DNA from: Brachyspira alvinipulli ATCC 51933
GTDB taxonomy: Bacteria; Spirochaetota; Brachyspiria; Brachyspirales; Brachyspiraceae
Length of the DNA stretch: 64,000 bases
Direction of reading: 5' to 3'
Assembly (NCBI RefSeq): GCF_000518245.1
Contig: NZ_KI912403.1
Span: 258,600 to 322,599, forward strand
This document shows positions 4,745-13,806 of this stretch, piece by piece. Below the pieces are notes generated by a model. The model saw only the letters and a program-made list of their open reading frames with translations. It had not been told where the DNA came from and ran no database searches. Each line of letters begins with the position of its first letter. Position 1 is the stretch's first letter. Made by a program: the position numbers and the translations under genes.

Positions 4745-5887
4745 TTACATATATAATTTATCTCTTACTTTTGATGCCCATTCTTTTTTATCATTTATTG
4801 AATCTTTAGATAATAGTAACTCATTAAAGGTATTTTTATATCCATCAGAAGTATCAGATAATTTTTCTATAATATCCAAAGCTTTATCAATATTGGATTC
4901 ATTATCCATTAATATCTCTATTATATATAATGAAAGCATTCTCATTTCATTAAATGTTCCTTTTTTACCTATCATAAAACCATAACATCTTTCAAAATAT
5001 TTAGTGTTAACCTCTTTATTATTATATTTATACAATAATAAAGTATATTCTTTTTGTATATCTACATCTTCCATTGAAGATAAATTGTATTTTATAAAAT
5101 TTTTCTCATTAGAAATTAATAAAGCAGCAATTTCTTTTGATTTTTGACTTATTTTAAATGTATTGCAGTATCTTAAAAGCCTTATAACAAAAAACTTACA
5201 TCCTTTATCTTTTTTATTATATTGAGATAAATATATATTAATTTTATCACCTAATTCACCGATATTTTCATCATCCTCTAATATTAAATCCAAATATTTT
5301 TGAGTATATTCTAAAAACTCTTCTTCATTTTTAGCACTTATAGCTAAATTTTGTAAATAACTATATTCTCTAATAATTTGATAATTATTATTTTCAAAAT
5401 ATTCTATTGATTTAAAATAAAAATCTTTAGCTTTTTCTAAATCATTTGTATCATTTGTAACATAATAACTGATATTATAGCTTTGTCCTAAAGTGCCATA
5501 TAATTTTGCTCTATCTTCTGATTTTATATTATTATCATCTAAAGTTTCATTTAATGCTTTTATAGAATCTTGAGCATTATATTTATACCAATACACAATA
5601 TAACTTATCGTATCAAATAATATAACCCTATCTTTAAACTCACTGCTATTTAAAGCATAATCTCTATAATTTTTATTATCTACTAAAACTTCATAAGCGT
5701 TTTTATCATCATCTGAATGATTAAAAACTGCCAATTTTTCTGTATTAATTGCAAATACTATTGCTTTATTCAAAGATATGTCATCTGTTAAAATATTTTT
5801 TTTAGCTAAAGATATTAAAATATCATAAGATTCTATAATATCATCATAATTATAAAGTGAATTAGATTCATACTCAATATTTTCCAA
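4745..5887 (-). CDS. helical-repeat (TPR-like) protein, probably 3' part of the split DUF3800 gene
   Basis: 380 residues read from the first possible start, a TTG at 5887 without a ribosome site. The frame is open all the way up to the TAA at 6002-6004 that ends the DUF3800 ORF, and both ORFs are in the same frame, separated only by that stop. The upstream extension reads as protein (KIFSKIANYFKEDKHWKK). The body is all-alpha with paired helices of about 35 residues (RAKLYGTLGQSYNISYYV, LEKAKDFYFKSIEYFENN), resembling TPR repeats. It may be the C-terminal domain of a 1155-residue protein cut by a nonsense mutation, or a separate downstream gene. Confidence 0.5.
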   Translation of the reverse strand: MENIEYESNSLYNYDDIIESYDILISLAKKNILTDDISLNKAIVFAINTEKLAVFNHSDDDKNAYEVLVDNKNYRDYALNSSEFKDRVILFDTISYIVYWYKYNAQDSIKALNETLDDNNIKSEDRAKLYGTLGQSYNISYYVTNDTNDLEKAKDFYFKSIEYFENNNYQIIREYSYLQNLAISAKNEEEFLEYTQKYLDLILEDDENIGELGDKINIYLSQYNKKDKGCKFFVIRLLRYCNTFKISQKSKEIAALLISNEKNFIKYNLSSMEDVDIQKEYTLLLYKYNNKEVNTKYFERCYGFMIGKKGTFNEMRMLSLYIIEILMDNESNIDKALDIIEKLSDTSDGYKNTFNELLLSKDSINDKKEWASKVRDKLYM

Positions 5888-6001
5888 AATAGATTTTAAA
5901 GCTGCAACTATATATCTGATTTTTTTCCAATGCTTATCTTCTTTAAAATAATTTGCAATTTTTGAAAATATTTTTTCAGCATATGCTTTAGTGTTTATAT
6001 T

Positions 6002-8211
6002 TTAATTATTTGAAAAATAAATCTTTCTAAATGTAATATATTTACTTAAAATATTAAAATAATCTTTTTTTTCTAGATATAAATCTATATCTTTACTAAA
6101 AGGATTATACTTAATTTTTAAATAACATAAATATAAAAATGTTGTAAATATCCCAGTGTCCATTCCATTACCATGTTTAAATGAATAAAACATATTACAA
6201 AAATAATCAGCTATAACTAAATCAGTATCTTTTGTAGCATTTGTTAAAGGAAGTATGGAATATTCTAAATTTTTACTATTCAACCCATAATTAATTTTTA
6301 TTTTCTCTATTCCATCTTTTATAAATGGTTCTATATCCAATATTTCTAAATATCTAGTATTGGATAGATATCTCATATTTTGTTTTTTCCATTCATCTAA
6401 TATATCATTTATATTTACTGCATTTTCTATAGAAGACATCAAAAAATTTTCAACATCTTTAAATTTAAAAGTAAGGCTTTTATATTTATCTTCATAGCTT
6501 CTTGATGAAAGTTTTATAATTAATAGCAATTTTTCTTCACTTAAATTAATTTTATCATCTGATATGATTTTATTTAATGTTTTAATTACTAAATCAGAAA
6601 GCAAATCAACATAATATTGTCTAGTAAAATCTATATTAAAAGGATTTTTTTCATATACATATATAAATTTTCCGCCATTTATTTTTATTAATCTAAATAC
6701 ATCATAAGTAATTGCTTTCTTTTTATTCTTTTCTAGTTCATTTCTATGCAATAAAGTATCATCAAATATTCTAAATTTATGTCTTAATATATCAAAATAA
6801 TTTTTTGTAATATTATTCCATTTTCTCATATTAATATCATTAATTAAATATCCGCCTATTATAAATACATTCTCTCTATTATCATTAATATTGCCGCTTT
6901 CATCCATATAAAGATTGTATACCCTCAAATCAGAAAATAATAAATCCATTATTTCATATCTTACATTAATTTTATTACAGAATGAATATAATTTCTCCGA
7001 AGAAACAGAATGTTTGAAAATTGCAAGTAAATAAATCAATGGAAAATTATTATTTTCTATTTTAAGATTAAAAACTTCCTGCAAATACTTATCTATATAA
7101 TTGTTTTCTTCATTATTTTTTTTATCTTTTTCTTTTAATACTATATCTGTAGCCTTATTTTTAAATAGTAAAAGATCTTCATCTGTTAAAGAATTTATAA
7201 TTAATTTGTCATCTAATATATCAATATTTGATATGATTCTTTTTATGTTATCATCATCAATTTTATTTTCTTTAGCCTTAGTAAGTAATTCTAGTATATA
7301 ACCTTTGCTATTATTATCTAAAATACTAAAAACATCTCTAAAAGTAATTAACTGTTTATTTTCAAAAAGAACAATATTTATAATATCTTTTTTAATATCA
7401 GATTCATCATCAAATAAATATATCAATGAAGAGAATAAATACATAAAAGGAAAATTAGAATTATCATTAATAATATTATCTAAGTTAACATCTAATAAGT
7501 TTTTAATATAATCCATTTTTTCATTTTCTTCTCTTATCTTTTTTTTACAAAATAATTTTTGTATTATATCCTTCACTATACCCAATTGAATTTCATCAAA
7601 ATTATTAACTTTAATTTGGATATTAGTAATATTAATATCTTTAATTAAAGAGTCTATATATTCATTATGATAATCATATCTTTTTAATTCTATAAATAAA
7701 TCTCTAATCTTTTTTTGTCTTCAGGATACAATATATCAAATAAATCTTCAAAAAATATTTTGTCTGTATTTTCAATAAATACAATATTATTTATTTTCTT
7801 TATAAATTCATCATTAAAATATTCATCAACATTACAAAAATAAAAAATAGATAAAATATAAGCAAATGGAAATAATTTATTATTATTTTTTATATCATCT
7901 ATTATGGTATTTGGAATATTATAAATATATTTGTTGATTTCATCAAAAGTAATATTTTCATTATATTCTATATATTTATATAAATATTCTTTTAACAATA
8001 TGTGTAAAAAATCAATCTGTTCCTCTGAAATATTATTTATCTTAAAATTATAACTTATCGTAGATTCTATATTAGAAATTATTTTCTCTAAATCAGTATT
8101 TTCATGGTTACTATTTTTAGCATTATGTACTAATTGTAATAATTCATTTTTAATATTATCATTGCTTATTATATCATTACAATATATAAATTTTTCATTA
8201 TCAATTAACAT
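6002..8211 (-). pseudogene. DUF3800-domain protein gene split by a frameshift
   Basis: Two abutting open stretches, 8211-7690 and about 7716-6002, are in adjacent frames. Adding one base to the seven-T run at 7710-7716 (A7 on the coding strand) joins them without a break into 736 residues. Near restored residue 435 the protein has YMDESG followed by NVFIIGGYLI, and near 665 VIADYF: the N- and C-terminal signatures of DUF3800, an RNase H-like-fold family often found in mobile or defence loci. The first 430 residues hold three copies of a module with FPFAYILSIFYF, FPFMYLFSSLIYLF and FPLIYLLAIF. The ATG at 8211 has a weak upstream GAGGATT. It could be inactive, phase-variable at A7, or an assembly error. 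Confidence 0.65.
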
Positions 8212-8440: not shown

Positions 8441-9352
8441 ATGAAGAACATCATAATATCAATAATATTTATTTGCAATAGTATTGCATTTTCTTATGAC
8501 CTAGTTTCTATAATTAATGATTATAGATTCAAAAATGGAAGACTATCATTAAAACAAAGTTATGAATTAGATATAGCTACATCTAAAATGGCGGAAATGT
8601 ATGCCAATGAAGGTACTTTGGATAATGATATGATTGGAGAAGCACTTTCAGATATCAATTTAAATATTACTTCTTTTGTAATTAGCAATATAGACGGATT
8701 CGATTCTTCTGATTCATTAGTAAAAATTTGTCTGCCTTCTAATGATTTTTTAGCTAATTATGATTATGCCTCAGTTGGAGTTTATAGGGTTGGAAATTAT
8801 AATTATGTGGTAACTGCTATTTATAATGAAATTGATTATAATGCTGAAGTTGATAAAATATATGATTTAATAACATACAATAGGAATAATAATGGAGCTA
8901 TAACAAAATTAAAAAGAGATAAAAATTTAGAAAAAATGGCAATGGCTAGAGCAAAAGAATTATTTGAAAACTATTCACATACGAGACCAAATGGAAAAGA
9001 ATTCTACACAATAATGGAAGACTTGAATATAAAAAATTACTGGAATGGAAATGGAGAAAATATTGCTTATGGATATAAGGATGCCAAACATGTAATGAAA
9101 GGCTGGATGGAATCTAAAGGTCATAGAGAAAATATTCTTGATAAAAGATATACAAGTGTTGGAGTAGGATTATATATAAAAAACGGCTTAGCTTATTGGG
9201 TACAAATATTTGGAATAGATAATCCAAAATATAAAGATAATAATACTGAATATAATAAAAAAGACAATGAATATAATACTTATAATCAATATGATTCTTA
9301 TCAAGACTATGATGAATACGAAGATCATTATAAAAATGATTCTTTATACTGA
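8441..9352 (+). CDS. secreted CAP/SCP-domain protein, two CAP-like halves
   Basis: 303 residues with a signal peptide (1-19, ending near AFS). Residues about 147-262 form a CAP (SCP/PR-1) domain with the usual signatures HTRPNGKEF, GENIAYGY, and GWMESKGHRENIL, including both histidines of the cavity. Residues 20-140 look like a second, degenerate CAP fold (DYRFKNGRLSLKQSYELDIA) lacking those histidines. The tail from about 268 is a low-complexity Tyr/Asp/Asn stretch. Bacterial CAP proteins are exported and of mostly unknown activity. AAGGAG precedes the ATG. Its stop lies 4 bp before the promoter of the left repeat array. Confidence 0.85.
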   Translation: MKNIIISIIFICNSIAFSYDLVSIINDYRFKNGRLSLKQSYELDIATSKMAEMYANEGTLDNDMIGEALSDINLNITSFVISNIDGFDSSDSLVKICLPSNDFLANYDYASVGVYRVGNYNYVVTAIYNEIDYNAEVDKIYDLITYNRNNNGAITKLKRDKNLEKMAMARAKELFENYSHTRPNGKEFYTIMEDLNIKNYWNGNGENIAYGYKDAKHVMKGWMESKGHRENILDKRYTSVGVGLYIKNGLAYWVQIFGIDNPKYKDNNTEYNKKDNEYNTYNQYDSYQDYDEYEDHYKNDSLY

Positions 9353-9356
9353 GTAT

Positions 9357-9385
9357 TTGACAATACAATAAAATGATATTATACT
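9357..9385 (+). promoter_or_regulatory. sigma70-like promoter of left repeat array
   Basis: TTGACA at 9357-9362, a 17-bp spacer, then TATACT at 9380-9385. This is a 6/6 and 5/6 match at ideal spacing, pointing into the array. The expected RNA start is near 9392, about 12 nt before the first 28-nt variable segment. Confidence 0.6.
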
Positions 9386-9403: not shown

Positions 9404-9776
9404 ATAGGAGGCGTGGTACAAAGTATCATCCGTCCCGATACCCTGTTGCTTATGCCTTAAAGAGTGGTTTTAATAAACTGTTTCTGGATATACAGGAAAG
9501 CGGGATTTCCACCAGCTACTGCAATAGTTTTTTAGGTCTCGATACCCTGTTGCTTATGGCTTAAAGAGAGGTTTTAATAAACTGTTTCTGGATATACAGG
9601 AAAGCGGGATTTGTATTGATTTTTAATCTCAGTCATGTAGTCTCGATACCCTATTCAAAGGACTGCGTGTGCCTTTGGCTATAAAAATTGCTAGTGCCTG
9701 CCTAACATTCGAAAGAATGGCATAAGTTATTAACTAGTAATTTTTTATTGATGATAAAATATAGGAAAGTGGGATT
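9404..9776 (+). CRISPR. atypical CRISPR-like array, left (two 76-nt repeats plus one 137-nt repeat)
   Basis: Repeat 1 is 9432-9507 and repeat 2 is 9536-9611; they differ at only a few positions. Both begin GTCYCGATACCC and end AGGAAAGCGGGATT. A third unit, 9640-9776, shares these ends but has a different, longer interior. The segments between them, 9508-9535 and 9612-9639, are both exactly 28 nt and unrelated in sequence; the 28 nt before repeat 1 (9404-9431) would be a further one. Each 76-nt repeat can fold: GAT(A)CCC pairs with GGGATT, GCTT with AAGC, and inside are hairpins TTAAA/TTTAA and TTTCTG/CAGGAA. A promoter and a terminator bracket the array. The repeats are far longer than ordinary CRISPR repeats, so the CRISPR label is tentative; tandem small RNAs are the alternative. 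Confidence 0.45.
9640..9776 (+). ncRNA. long terminal repeat-unit RNA of left array
   Basis: A 137-nt unit with the 76-nt repeat's ends (GTCTCGATACCC and AGGAAAGTGGGATT) around a different core. The core has a CAAAGG/CCTTTG stem, a 13-bp stem AAAAATTGCTAGT with ACTAGTAATTTTT, and an apical CATTC-GAAA-GAATG hairpin with a GNRA loop. It is about 80% identical to the unit at 13627-13758, with partly compensated stem changes. It is followed after 4 nt by the terminator. It may be a variant final repeat or a distinct structural RNA domain. Confidence 0.45.
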
Positions 9777-9780
9777 AATG

Positions 9781-9816
9781 GCTCTGTTAAGGTTCATAAT
9801 CTTGGCATGGCTTTTT
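9781..9816 (+). terminator. terminator of left repeat array
   Basis: Stem GCTCTG-TT-AAGGTT, loop CAT, AATCTT-GG-CATGGC (with wobble pairs and one mismatch), followed by TTTTT. It lies 4 nt after the long repeat, exactly as in the right array. Confidence 0.6.
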
Positions 9817-10295: not shown

Positions 10296-13200
10296 TTATT
10301 TTTTATTGTATTTATTATTTTTTAGATATACATCTTTTAAAGATTTTTCTAAAGTTTTTTTCATAGCATCATCTAATATAGATATAGCAGACTTATAATT
10401 AAGTTCAGCACTTTCATCAAATAATCTTCCATGTGCCAACATATTTCTAACATTTATTATTTTTTCAGTTTCAGAATCATCAAAAGCAGAATTATTTTTA
10501 TGATTATCTAAAACTCTTATTTTTTCTATATCTATATTATGTAAACTAACTAAATCTCTGAAATTGAAATATCCCTCTTCTCTTGTTAATTCATCTATTT
10601 GAGGTTGAGTATATATTTTATTTAGTGTGTATATAATATCAGCCTCTATGTTACAAATAAAATATAATAATTCTTTTTGAGCCCATACCAAAACTTTTAC
10701 CATATCTTTTATATTATCTGCATTTAAAATATCTTTGCCAATCTCTGCAGAAACTTTAGGACATTTATTTTTTAATATATAATGAGAAGTAATCATTTTA
10801 TAAGATTTAATGACATTAGTAAGACATTCCTGTAAATCTTTCTTTCCTCCAATTCTACCTTCTTCTTTTATTCTTGAAGCATCGAATATCCAATTTAAAG
10901 CAGAACGTATATCTTTTTTCATATAGTCTTTTATATTAATTTCAATGATAGGATTTAATTCCCATATTAAATTAAATTTTAAAGGGCTATTATCTGTTAT
11001 ATCCTCATAACTTTCTAATCTGAAATAAGAATTTCTATTTTTATTCATATTATTAACATATTGTAAAGATATATATGTTAATATCATTTCTTCTGCTATA
11101 ATATTTCTAATTTCTTTATTTCTGTATTTATCTATTTTATTATTTTTAATATAATCATTATATATATCAACTAAATGAGGAGGAGTCATTTTTTCTTGTT
11201 CAAAAATTTTTGACAGTATATCAAATAAATCCGCATTTTTATTTTTAATATCATATTTAGTTTTTATATCATTCCATTGAAGTATGTCTGAAATTTCTTT
11301 GTTTTTCTCATTACAAGGAAGAAATGCAAATTTACTCCAAGTTTTAAAAAGTAAATTATCAGAATCGTTTTTTATTTCTTTATTTGGAATAGTAAATAAA
11401 GTAAAAGATTGATTAAGCATTTCAGATAAAGTATTACATCTAAGTACATTCTTTACTTTATCAGAAAAATTACGTGTATCAACTTTATATCTATGCATAA
11501 CAGCAATGACATCATCATATACATTTCCAGTTCTATTATCTAATAAATATAAAACTCTAGTAAATTCATGGAAGAAAGCAACACTATCTCTGTTATGTAA
11601 TTTCACATTTTTCATAGCACTTCTTCTAATAACTTTAATTATAAAAGAAGCCTGCTGATATCTATTCCAATTTTCACTTTTCTTTTTAATAGCATCAATT
11701 AATAATCTATCATTATTAACTTTATTAGTTTCTTTATTATTAGAAGCGGTACAATTATCTGATGCAGTAGTTTTTAATTTTTTGAATTCCACTCCACCAT
11801 TAATTAAAATAGAAGTTATTAAGGCTCTTAAATTATGTCTGTTTAAACTGTATCTTTCTGCATTTTTTTTACTGTACACTATTTTATATATGGAATGTAA
11901 TCCATTTTTTGAAGGCTTAACTTTTCTTCTCAGATCAAATAATATATCATCATTAGGCTCAATCCATATAATAGTATTTCCAGATATAGTCCAAGTATTA
12001 TTTCCAAATTGACTTTTATATTTTAAAGATAAAAATTCAGCTGCATCTTTAATAAAAATATCTTCATTTCTAAACACATTAGTTAATAAAGGTATAATAT
12101 TTTTATACTCAGTTTCCAAACGAGGTACAGGCTGTTCTTTTAATATTTCATCACGCCCTACTTTAGCATTATGCTCTTTAACATTTCTATTAAACTCTAT
12201 TATACCATCAATTTTATTCTTATTGGCATTCGCTATTTCTTTGGCTTTAAACTCTCTTATTAAATCTTCAAATTCTTCAATCTTTGGAAAACTTGTTCTA
12301 TAGCTATAGAATTTCAAAATCTTTTTATAAACTGCAAAGTCATTATTAACATCAATATCATTAATATTGAAATATGATAAGTTTTTTTTAAGTCTTCTTC
12401 CTGTAGTAGAAACTTCATTATTAACTATATATTCATTTTCTATTTGTTTTAAATATAATTCATCATCTTCTAAAGAAATACCTGGAACAAAAGTTTTATA
12501 TCCACCTCTTAAAGAAAATGAAAGTATAAATTCCTCAATAAATTTTTTCAATTTTATTAAGTCCAAAATATCTTTTATATACTTACTTTCAACAAACATA
12601 GCCAATATTGATAAAGCATATATAAATGGTACATTGGCAAAATTTTCTCCCATTCTTTCAGCATTCATTTCCAATACTTTTTTTATATATTCATTTTTAA
12701 TCTCAAATTTATCAGATGATAATTTTATACCTTCTTCTTTATTTTTTTCTTTTAATAAAGATTTTTGTTTATCATTGATTCCAAAAGCAGCCTTCATATT
12801 AAGTATTAAAAATGTAAATAAATCTCCTTGAAATTTTTTAAATTTACATCTTGAAAAAGTATCTTCTTTTACATTTTTATGCATCATTATATTTCTAAAA
12901 TCTCTTAAAAATACTGCAGCCTCAGTAAAAGCATTATTGATTTTATACTCCAACACATTCTGTCTAATAAGCATATTATCTTCTTTGATAAATTCATCTT
13001 TATATTCTGAAGGAAGTTTTTCAAATCTATTTCTTATAACAACTGCAAAATCTTTTTTAAGATGTGATTTTTCATATTTAAATTGTTTATTTTCAACAAT
13101 AAATGTAAGAAGCGGTATTAATAGTTTTTTAATTTTATTTTTATCTTTGTCATTGTGCTTCTTATCTTCTTTCAAAAAATAAGATAAATAATATATTTCA

Positions 13201-13355
13201 TTGTTATTTCTATTATTGTTATTATTTCTATTGTTATTATTATTATTATTGCTGTCTACAGTATTTTCATCAGAATTAAATAATTGATCAAATGGATTAT
13301 AAGTTTGAGAATCGGGTGTATATGAATATCTTTTTTTACTATGATTATTAGACAT
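10296..13355 (-). CDS. Cas13-like protein with two HEPN RNxxxH motifs
   Basis: 1019 residues. The N-terminal motif RNIMMH (R154-H159, in FLRDFRNIMMHKNV) and the C-terminal motif RNMLAH (R970-H975, in NVRNMLAHGRLF) both match R-N-x3-H, the HEPN ribonuclease signature. One motif near each end, the second 44 residues from the terminus, is the topology of Cas13b and Cas13X/Y, not of Cas13a/d; the size lies between Cas13d and Cas13b. In Cas13 the two HEPN domains form one RNase site after guide-RNA pairing. Residues 36-53 are a poly-Asn linker. The start ATG follows AAAGGA. Structured repeat arrays flank it on the opposite strand and no cas1/cas2 is present. What lies between the motifs is not recognisable by eye. 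Alternatives are a toxin-type HEPN RNase controlled by the flanking RNAs. The HEPN assignment is secure in motif; Cas13 homology is inferred. Confidence 0.65.
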   Translation of the reverse strand: MSNNHSKKRYSYTPDSQTYNPFDQLFNSDENTVDSNNNNNNNRNNNNNRNNNEIYYLSYFLKEDKKHNDKDKNKIKKLLIPLLTFIVENKQFKYEKSHLKKDFAVVIRNRFEKLPSEYKDEFIKEDNMLIRQNVLEYKINNAFTEAAVFLRDFRNIMMHKNVKEDTFSRCKFKKFQGDLFTFLILNMKAAFGINDKQKSLLKEKNKEEGIKLSSDKFEIKNEYIKKVLEMNAERMGENFANVPFIYALSILAMFVESKYIKDILDLIKLKKFIEEFILSFSLRGGYKTFVPGISLEDDELYLKQIENEYIVNNEVSTTGRRLKKNLSYFNINDIDVNNDFAVYKKILKFYSYRTSFPKIEEFEDLIREFKAKEIANANKNKIDGIIEFNRNVKEHNAKVGRDEILKEQPVPRLETEYKNIIPLLTNVFRNEDIFIKDAAEFLSLKYKSQFGNNTWTISGNTIIWIEPNDDILFDLRRKVKPSKNGLHSIYKIVYSKKNAERYSLNRHNLRALITSILINGGVEFKKLKTTASDNCTASNNKETNKVNNDRLLIDAIKKKSENWNRYQQASFIIKVIRRSAMKNVKLHNRDSVAFFHEFTRVLYLLDNRTGNVYDDVIAVMHRYKVDTRNFSDKVKNVLRCNTLSEMLNQSFTLFTIPNKEIKNDSDNLLFKTWSKFAFLPCNEKNKEISDILQWNDIKTKYDIKNKNADLFDILSKIFEQEKMTPPHLVDIYNDYIKNNKIDKYRNKEIRNIIAEEMILTYISLQYVNNMNKNRNSYFRLESYEDITDNSPLKFNLIWELNPIIEINIKDYMKKDIRSALNWIFDASRIKEEGRIGGKKDLQECLTNVIKSYKMITSHYILKNKCPKVSAEIGKDILNADNIKDMVKVLVWAQKELLYFICNIEADIIYTLNKIYTQPQIDELTREEGYFNFRDLVSLHNIDIEKIRVLDNHKNNSAFDDSETEKIINVRNMLAHGRLFDESAELNYKSAISILDDAMKKTLEKSLKDVYLKNNKYNKK

Positions 13356-13451: not shown

Positions 13452-13480
13452 TTGACATATTAATATTTAGTTGTTAAAAT
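13452..13480 (+). promoter_or_regulatory. sigma70-like promoter of right repeat array
   Basis: TTGACA at 13452-13457, a 17-bp spacer, and TAAAAT at 13475-13480, pointing away from the Cas13-like gene into the right array. The expected start is near 13487. The gap from the -10 box to the putative first 28-nt segment is 16 nt, against 18 nt in the left array. Confidence 0.6.
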
Positions 13481-13496
13481 AATACAACTAACTAAA

Positions 13497-13758
13497 TTAC
13501 AGTTTCTATATGGGTTCGCCACCAGTCTCGATACCCTGTTGCTTATAGCTTAAAAAGTGGTTTTAATAAATCGTTTCTGGATATACAGGAAAGCGGGATT
13601 ACCGGGATTTCTGTAATCTCTTGTGTGTCTTGATACCCTATTCAAAGGACTGCGTGTGCCTTAATAAAAAATTGTGAGTGCCTGGCATTCAAGAGAATAG
13701 CAGGAGCTTATTAACGAGCAATTTTTTATTTATGATAAAAATATAGGAAAGCGGGATT
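13497..13758 (+). CRISPR. atypical CRISPR-like array, right (one 76-nt repeat plus one 132-nt repeat)
   Basis: The 76-nt repeat at 13525-13600 matches the two in the left array, including GTCTCGATACCCTG, TTTCTGGATATACAGGAAAG and the final GCGGGATT. A 26-nt unrelated segment (13601-13626) separates it from the long unit 13627-13758. The 28 nt at 13497-13524 fit a leading variable segment. It is transcribed divergently from the Cas13-like gene, from a promoter at 13452-13480 to a terminator at 13763-13806, predicting an RNA of about 320 nt. As for the left array, the repeats are unusually long for CRISPR. Confidence 0.45.
13627..13758 (+). ncRNA. long terminal repeat-unit RNA of right array
   Basis: The counterpart of 9640-9776, starting GTCTTGATACCCTATTC and ending AGGAAAGCGGGATT. 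The central AAAAAATTG/CAATTTTTT stem and the apical ATTC-AAGA-GAAT hairpin are kept despite small indels, as expected for a conserved RNA fold. Confidence 0.45.
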
Positions 13759-13762
13759 AATA

Positions 13763-13806
13763 GCTCTGTTAAGATTCAAAATCTTGGCAGGGCCTTTGTT
13801 TTTTTA
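13763..13806 (+). terminator. terminator of right repeat array
   Basis: GCTCTG-TT-AAGATT, loop CAA, AATCTT-GG-CAGGGC, then CTTTGTTTTTTT. The stem is fully paired apart from an internal TT/GG step, and the T-run makes it a strong intrinsic terminator on the plus strand. Positioned 4 nt past the long repeat. Confidence 0.75.

What the first reader, a model, noticed from the sequence alone, without database searches (positions are those of the whole stretch)
10296..13355. Cas13-like protein with two RNxxxH HEPN motifs in a spirochaete
Seen: R154-N-I-M-M-H159 and R970-N-M-L-A-H975 in one 1019-residue protein, one near each end, the second 44 residues from the C-terminus. Known: Cas13b and Cas13X/Y have exactly this topology, with two HEPN domains forming one RNase centre. 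To my knowledge VI-B effectors have been described mainly in Bacteroidetes. Inferred: a new Cas13-like branch, or a HEPN RNase precursor of Cas13 that uses structured RNAs.
Basis: partly seen in the sequence, partly recalled or inferred. Interest (0 to 1): 0.95.

Follow-up and report, generated by a model that had tools for sequence, protein, structure and literature searches.

The report
Brachyspira VI-F Cas13 with stretched repeats
The gene encodes the RNA-cutting effector of a CRISPR immune system (subtype VI-F) that was named in 2025 from gut spirochaetes, and the less expected part is that its guide-RNA repeats have grown from 35 to as much as 172 bases by swallowing hairpin elements.

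Summary
In detail: a 1019-residue protein carries RNIMMH at 154-159 and RNMLAH at 970-975. It is a true CRISPR effector, not a precursor. It matches PADLOC's Cas13gr13 profile over its full length (1621 bits), and it corresponds to subtype VI-F, which Makarova et al. 2025 report only from Brachyspira. Relatives have cas1, cas2, effector and a DUF3800 gene together.

The less expected part is the repeats. A 35-nt core (GTCTCGATACCC...GGAAAGCGGGAT) folds into a covarying two-stem hairpin. In most arrays its apical loop is replaced by larger hairpins, giving repeats of 35, 54-56, 74-75, 102-136 or 172 nt, while spacers stay 27-31 nt. In Brachyspira the largest inserts belong to a palindrome family scattered through the genus. 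All repeats in this window are expanded. A relative in another spirochaete family (30% identical) shows the same architecture, so VI-F is not confined to Brachyspira.

Not shown: the HEPN fold (no PDB match), RNA cleavage, crRNA processing, or targets of this window's spacers. The effector is already known; the composite repeats and the second host family appear new.

The parts
10296..13355 (-). cas13f (subtype VI-F effector), 1019 aa
   Evidence: PADLOC Cas13gr13 1620.8 bits over 61-1010; homologues in 8 Brachyspira genomes and one other spirochaete
12879..12896 (-). first catalytic motif RNIMMH (R154-H159), HEPN1
   Evidence: invariant R, N and H in 8 homologues
10431..10448 (-). second catalytic motif RNMLAH (R970-H975), HEPN2
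   Evidence: N and H invariant in 8 homologues, R->K only in G001
9357..9385 (+). promoter-like site TTGACA-17-TATACT before the left array
   Evidence: 11 of 12 matches, joint best in the region
9432..9506 (+). CRISPR repeat 1 of left array, 75-nt composite form
9507..9535 (+). spacer, 29 nt
   Evidence: no target found
9536..9610 (+). CRISPR repeat 2 of left array, 75-nt composite form
9611..9639 (+). spacer, 29 nt
   Evidence: no target found
9640..9775 (+). terminal repeat of left array, 136-nt composite form with a dispersed palindrome inside
9780..9816 (+). hairpin followed by T-run after the left array
   Evidence: read from sequence; same position and similar sequence as the right-hand terminator
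13452..13480 (+). promoter-like site TTGACA-17-TAAAAT (extended -10) before the right array
   Evidence: 11 of 12 matches, joint best in the region
13525..13599 (+). CRISPR repeat 1 of right array, 75-nt composite form
13600..13626 (+). spacer, 27 nt
   Evidence: no target found
13627..13757 (+). terminal repeat of right array, 131-nt composite form with a dispersed palindrome inside
13763..13793 (+). intrinsic terminator after the right array
   Evidence: 14-pair stem plus T-run
4745..7585 (-). DUF3800 accessory gene, one frame broken by an in-frame TAA at 6002-6004 (intact, 881-918 aa, beside cas13f in relatives)
   Evidence: Pfam DUF3800 E 6.7e-6; tblastn 39-52% identity over 914-925 columns; stop seen; DUF3800 in VI-F loci per PMC12669027

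Best explanation
This is a type VI CRISPR-Cas locus of subtype VI-F. The 1019-aa protein is Cas13f in the sense of Makarova et al. 2025. Pre-crRNA is transcribed from two short arrays on the strand opposite to the effector. Each repeat folds as a basal stem (GUCUCG/CGGGAU), a 4x4 internal loop and a 5-bp apical stem. Cas13f binds and probably processes that handle, pairs the 27-31-nt spacer with foreign RNA, and the two RNxxxH motifs join into one RNase site that cuts RNA. The apical loop tolerates large inserted hairpins, many from a genus-wide palindrome family, so crRNA handles of 35-136 nt can be used, and spacer acquisition copies the expanded form. Shown: protein family, motif conservation, arrays, repeat covariation and strand, promoters, insert family, conserved neighbours. 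Inferred: HEPN fold, handle recognition, processing, RNA cleavage, function of expanded repeats, and the copying route.
For: PADLOC Cas13gr13 1621 bits full length plus Cas13Nterm and Cas13Cterm. Motifs conserved in 8 homologues. Arrays in 18 places of 8 Brachyspira genomes, 66 spacers of 27-31 nt, 64 distinct. The repeat-spacer-repeat pattern is found only in Brachyspira genomes with cas13f, plus G024, an 85%-complete MAG; control pattern 0. Repeat pairing 95.3% against 85.5% in shuffles and 33-45% in slid controls, 7 of 11 pairs with changes on both sides. The + strand folds better in 56 of 57 distinct repeats, 93% against 79% of pairs. The two best promoter-like sites of the region lie just before the two arrays, and the leader is conserved in most arrays. 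cas1-cas2 adjacent in G003, G011, G021. DUF3800 adjacent in several, including G114. Inserts are a dispersed family in 19 of 26 genomes. The same design is seen in G114. Literature: subtype VI-F in Brachyspira with DUF3800 (PMC12669027).
Against: No PDB match by sequence or by fold, so the HEPN fold is not shown. The window lacks cas1-cas2 nearby and its DUF3800 gene is broken by a stop, so the local system may be aging. None of this window's three spacers has a known target. The clear spacer matches found elsewhere lie in the sense orientation, which cannot pair with that mRNA if the assigned strand is right: three exact hits to G021's own genes and one phage hit. Self-hits in a harmless orientation would be expected to survive, but the phage hit is not explained by that.
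Confidence: 0.9

Rival explanations
1. The expanded repeats are decay: mobile palindromes landed in old repeats, those repeats no longer make usable crRNAs, and this window's locus is a remnant.
For: Long forms are enriched at the oldest, leader-distal position: 11 of 18 terminal against 20 of 66 other repeats, p=0.026. No cas1-cas2 nearby, DUF3800 broken. G001 shows a truly decayed array together with R970K.
Against: The outer 12 nt at each end, the pairing and the spacer length stay conserved in expanded repeats. The 75-nt form is the leader-proximal repeat in several arrays. Effector motifs are intact here. Composite repeats recur in G114, another family.
Confidence: 0.3
2. The long repeats are regulatory: their A-tract/T-tract hairpins work as internal terminators or attenuators that set how many downstream spacers are transcribed.
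For: Long forms hold strong hairpins followed by T-runs and tend to end the array.
Against: Arrays already carry a separate terminator after the last repeat. Long forms also sit in the middle of long arrays such as L023. The 54- and 75-nt forms have no such T-run.
Confidence: 0.2
3. A free-standing HEPN RNase that is a precursor of Cas13 and uses structured RNAs, as the first reader suggested as an alternative.
For: Repeats are unusually long and structured, and the window alone has few of them.
Against: Classic 35-nt repeats with 30-nt spacers and cas1-cas2 occur with the same protein family. The protein falls in a named Cas13 profile.
Confidence: 0.03

Closest known systems
CRISPR-Cas subtype VI-F (Cas13f of Makarova et al. 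2025, PMC12669027; PADLOC Cas13gr13)
   Same: Effector profile over full length, genus Brachyspira, DUF3800 neighbour
   Different: All repeats in this window are expanded (75 and 131-136 nt), two arrays flank the gene, cas1-cas2 absent nearby, DUF3800 interrupted. The main text of that paper describes neither composite repeats nor members outside the genus, such as G114.
CRISPR-Cas subtype VI-B (Cas13b)
   Same: HEPN motifs near both ends; long crRNAs with a composite repeat made of 5' and 3' parts of the 36-nt repeat around an intervening sequence (PMC8209922)
   Different: No match to a Cas13b profile; no Csx27/Csx28 recognised; cas1-cas2 present in some loci; several insert sizes rather than one, partly from a dispersed palindrome family
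REP/MITE-like dispersed palindromes of bacteria
   Same: Short palindromes scattered between genes, here in 19 of 26 Brachyspira genomes
   Different: Here also nested in the loop of CRISPR repeats and present at many positions of an array

Membership tests
Subtype VI-F | Effector belongs to the Cas13 group 13 / Cas13f family | tested here: met
   PDLC01195 1620.8 bits, 61-1010. That PADLOC gr13 equals VI-F is inferred from the Brachyspira-only description in PMC12669027.
Subtype VI-F | Two RNxxxH catalytic motifs, one near each end, conserved | tested here: met
Subtype VI-F | Associated CRISPR array | tested here: met
Subtype VI-F | DUF3800 RNase H-fold gene in some loci | tested here: met
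   in this window interrupted by one stop
Subtype VI-F | Reported range limited to Brachyspira (a reported distribution, not a defining property) | tested here: not met
   This window fits the range, but G114, another family of the phylum, has a full-length member on a contig of that genome's own composition.
Cas13 (type VI effectors) | Both motifs inside HEPN four-helix bundles | tested here: inconclusive
   Full-length model pLDDT 52. C-terminal model pLDDT 84, all helical, but no PDB match at E<=0.001; a HEPN protein (4nqf) is only rank 50 at E 8.7. G114 has a sub-threshold DUF4145 hit over motif 1.
Cas13 (type VI effectors) | Guide-dependent RNA cleavage | not testable with these tools
   Needs biochemistry
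Subtype VI-B | Cas13b effector profile | tested here: not met
   Only group 13 and its two terminal profiles match any of 7 members at E<=10
Subtype VI-B | Composite long repeat built from the two ends of the short repeat | tested here: met
   VI-B side from PMC8209922

The most novel reading that the evidence does not exclude
VI-F systems keep composite repeats as a working feature: Cas13f reads only the basal stem, internal loop and apical stem, and the loop is an open port into which genomic palindromes are inserted and then copied by spacer acquisition, giving crRNAs with handles of 35 to 172 nt. Because the same design occurs in a second spirochaete family with a different insert, it would be an ancient, selected property, possibly linked to transcription control or to the DUF3800 partner.
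Probability: 0.3. Interest if true: 0.7.

Novelty: new member of a known kind. Interest (0 to 1): 0.5.

Why it matters
I found no experimental work on VI-F in the paper library searched. This gives its repeat structure, crRNA strand, leader, array layout, a second host family and the residues to mutate. If expanded repeats make usable crRNAs, Cas13 handles tolerate large insertions, and arrays with repeats of unequal length may be missed by finders that assume short uniform repeats (my inference). A 2012 comparison reported CRISPR only in B. murdochii among the Brachyspira it examined (PMC3532143).

Tried and rejected
Pfam and NCBIfam: no family for the effector. PDB by sequence with one protein and with the profile: none. 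Rfam: none in the window region or in three related loci. AlphaFold full length: poor, not used. Foldseek of the C-terminal model: nothing significant. Relatives in IMG/VR or plasmids: none. Spacers against phage genomes and five spacers against IMG/VR: none. I first took the pre-crRNA strand to be that of the cas genes, by analogy with VI-B repeats; folding, G-U pairing, leader and promoters reversed this. Spacer base bias is weak: purine 0.468, 95% interval 0.444-0.493. Contamination of G114 by Brachyspira was considered and is disfavoured by GC and tetranucleotides.

Full report
Observation. The ORF at 10296-13355 (-) is 1019 aa and holds RNIMMH at 154-159 and RNMLAH at 970-975, as reported. 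A third RNxxxH at 390-395 is not conserved. Among 20,000 shuffles of the protein, 51 have two or more RNxxxH. Conservation is more telling: across eight homologues of 30-93% identity both motifs are kept, with one R-to-K change in G001.

Identity. PADLOC's Cas13gr13 profile covers residues 61-1010 with 1621 bits, and the Cas13 N- and C-terminal profiles match separately. No other Cas13 profile matches any of seven members at E up to 10. Makarova et al. [quoted passage not shown] The window genome sits in a genus where 8 of 26 genomes carry the protein; the relatives that could be named are B. pilosicoli, B. hampsonii and an uncultured Brachyspira. The effector is therefore Cas13f of VI-F; that the PADLOC group equals VI-F is inferred, but nothing contradicts it.

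Arrays. Two arrays lie on the + strand, either side of the effector: repeats 9432-9506, 9536-9610 and 9640-9775 on the left, 13525-13599 and 13627-13757 on the right, with spacers of 29, 29 and 27 nt. The two highest-scoring promoter-like sites of the region, 9357-9385 and 13452-13480, stand just before them, and a terminator follows the right array at 13763-13793. Copies elsewhere in the same genome are on contigs C4 and C13.

Related loci. In three relatives cas1 and cas2 adjoin cas13f, and an 881-918 aa protein follows it in several. In this window that gene is 4745-7585 (-), carries DUF3800 and is broken by one TAA at 6002-6004. A pattern joining repeat end, spacer and repeat start is found in the Brachyspira genomes with cas13f that have undecayed arrays, plus G024 (an 85%-complete MAG with no cas13f found), and the control pattern is absent everywhere.

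Composite repeats. Across 18 arrays in eight Brachyspira genomes I counted 85 repeats. All share about 12 nt at each end; the middle varies, so lengths are 35 (28 copies), 54-56 (17), 74-75 (9), 102-136 (30) and 172 (1). Spacers are 27-31 nt regardless. The largest inserts belong to a palindrome family found in 19 of 26 Brachyspira genomes, including several without VI-F, mostly outside arrays and between other flanks. The 75-nt interior was found only in arrays. Long forms are commoner at the leader-distal end, 11 of 18 against 20 of 66, p=0.026.

Structure and strand. The repeat ends pair as a 6-bp basal stem and 5-bp apical stem. On 27 distinct arms, 95.3% of cells pair, 7 of 11 pairs change on both sides, and shuffled and slid controls are far lower. 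Related arms inflate such counts, but the slid control keeps relatedness. The + strand is the more stable fold in 56 of 57 distinct repeats and keeps 93% of pairs against 79% for the complement. The leader next to the GTCTCG end is conserved in most arrays, cis and trans.

Outside the genus. Of 393 Spirochaetota genomes, one in another family (G114) has a full-length member at 30% identity with both motifs, a neighbouring DUF3800-like protein (below Pfam's cut-off), 36-nt repeats GTCACGGTACCC...GGAGAGCGTGAT and composite repeats of 65, 69 and 86 nt. Its contig matches the composition of that genome. Twelve other genomes of its order lack it. In G114 the insert was not shown to be dispersed.

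Targets. No target was found for the three window spacers. Elsewhere, three spacers of G021 match that genome's own genes exactly and one spacer of G011 matches a phage nucleoside 2-deoxyribosyltransferase-like gene in other genomes. All four are sense to the gene. If the strand assignment is right they cannot pair with that mRNA. This is expected for self-hits that survive, but it is unexplained for the phage hit, and it is the main loose end.

Limits. The HEPN fold was not demonstrated: the full-length model is poor and the good C-terminal model has no significant PDB match. Function, processing and cleavage are inferred from the family. The literature comparison used open papers only, and supplements could not be read.

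Noticed in passing
L022 7530-8240 (G001): A strongly decayed VI-F array beside a Cas13f whose second motif is K instead of R (VKNILAH); loss of selection on the system is a possible reading.
   Followed up: partly
window 4745-7585: The DUF3800 protein is only 52% identical to that of G008 while the neighbouring Cas13f is 93% identical, which suggests replacement or fast divergence of the accessory gene.
   Followed up: no
window 7690-8211: A 173-aa ORF upstream of the DUF3800 gene resembles its N-terminal part by eye, possibly a partial duplication.
   Followed up: no
window 8441-9352: A CAP-domain (YkwD-like) protein lies between the left array and the DUF3800 gene, also in G008; probably unrelated to the CRISPR system.
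   Followed up: no
L122 239-807; L120 368-723: Dispersed palindromes also occur as tandem copies (82-nt and 147-nt periods) elsewhere in Brachyspira, in L122 apparently running on from the end of a gene.
   Followed up: no
L223, L224, L225 (G021): Three spacers of one MAG match its own chromosomal genes exactly, all in the sense orientation.
   Followed up: partly
L088 and L089 (G000 C3 and C7): The window's genome has two other cas1 genes; the one on C3 lies in what looks like a type I operon (cas2, cas1 and further cas-like genes), a possible source of spacer acquisition in trans.
   Followed up: partly
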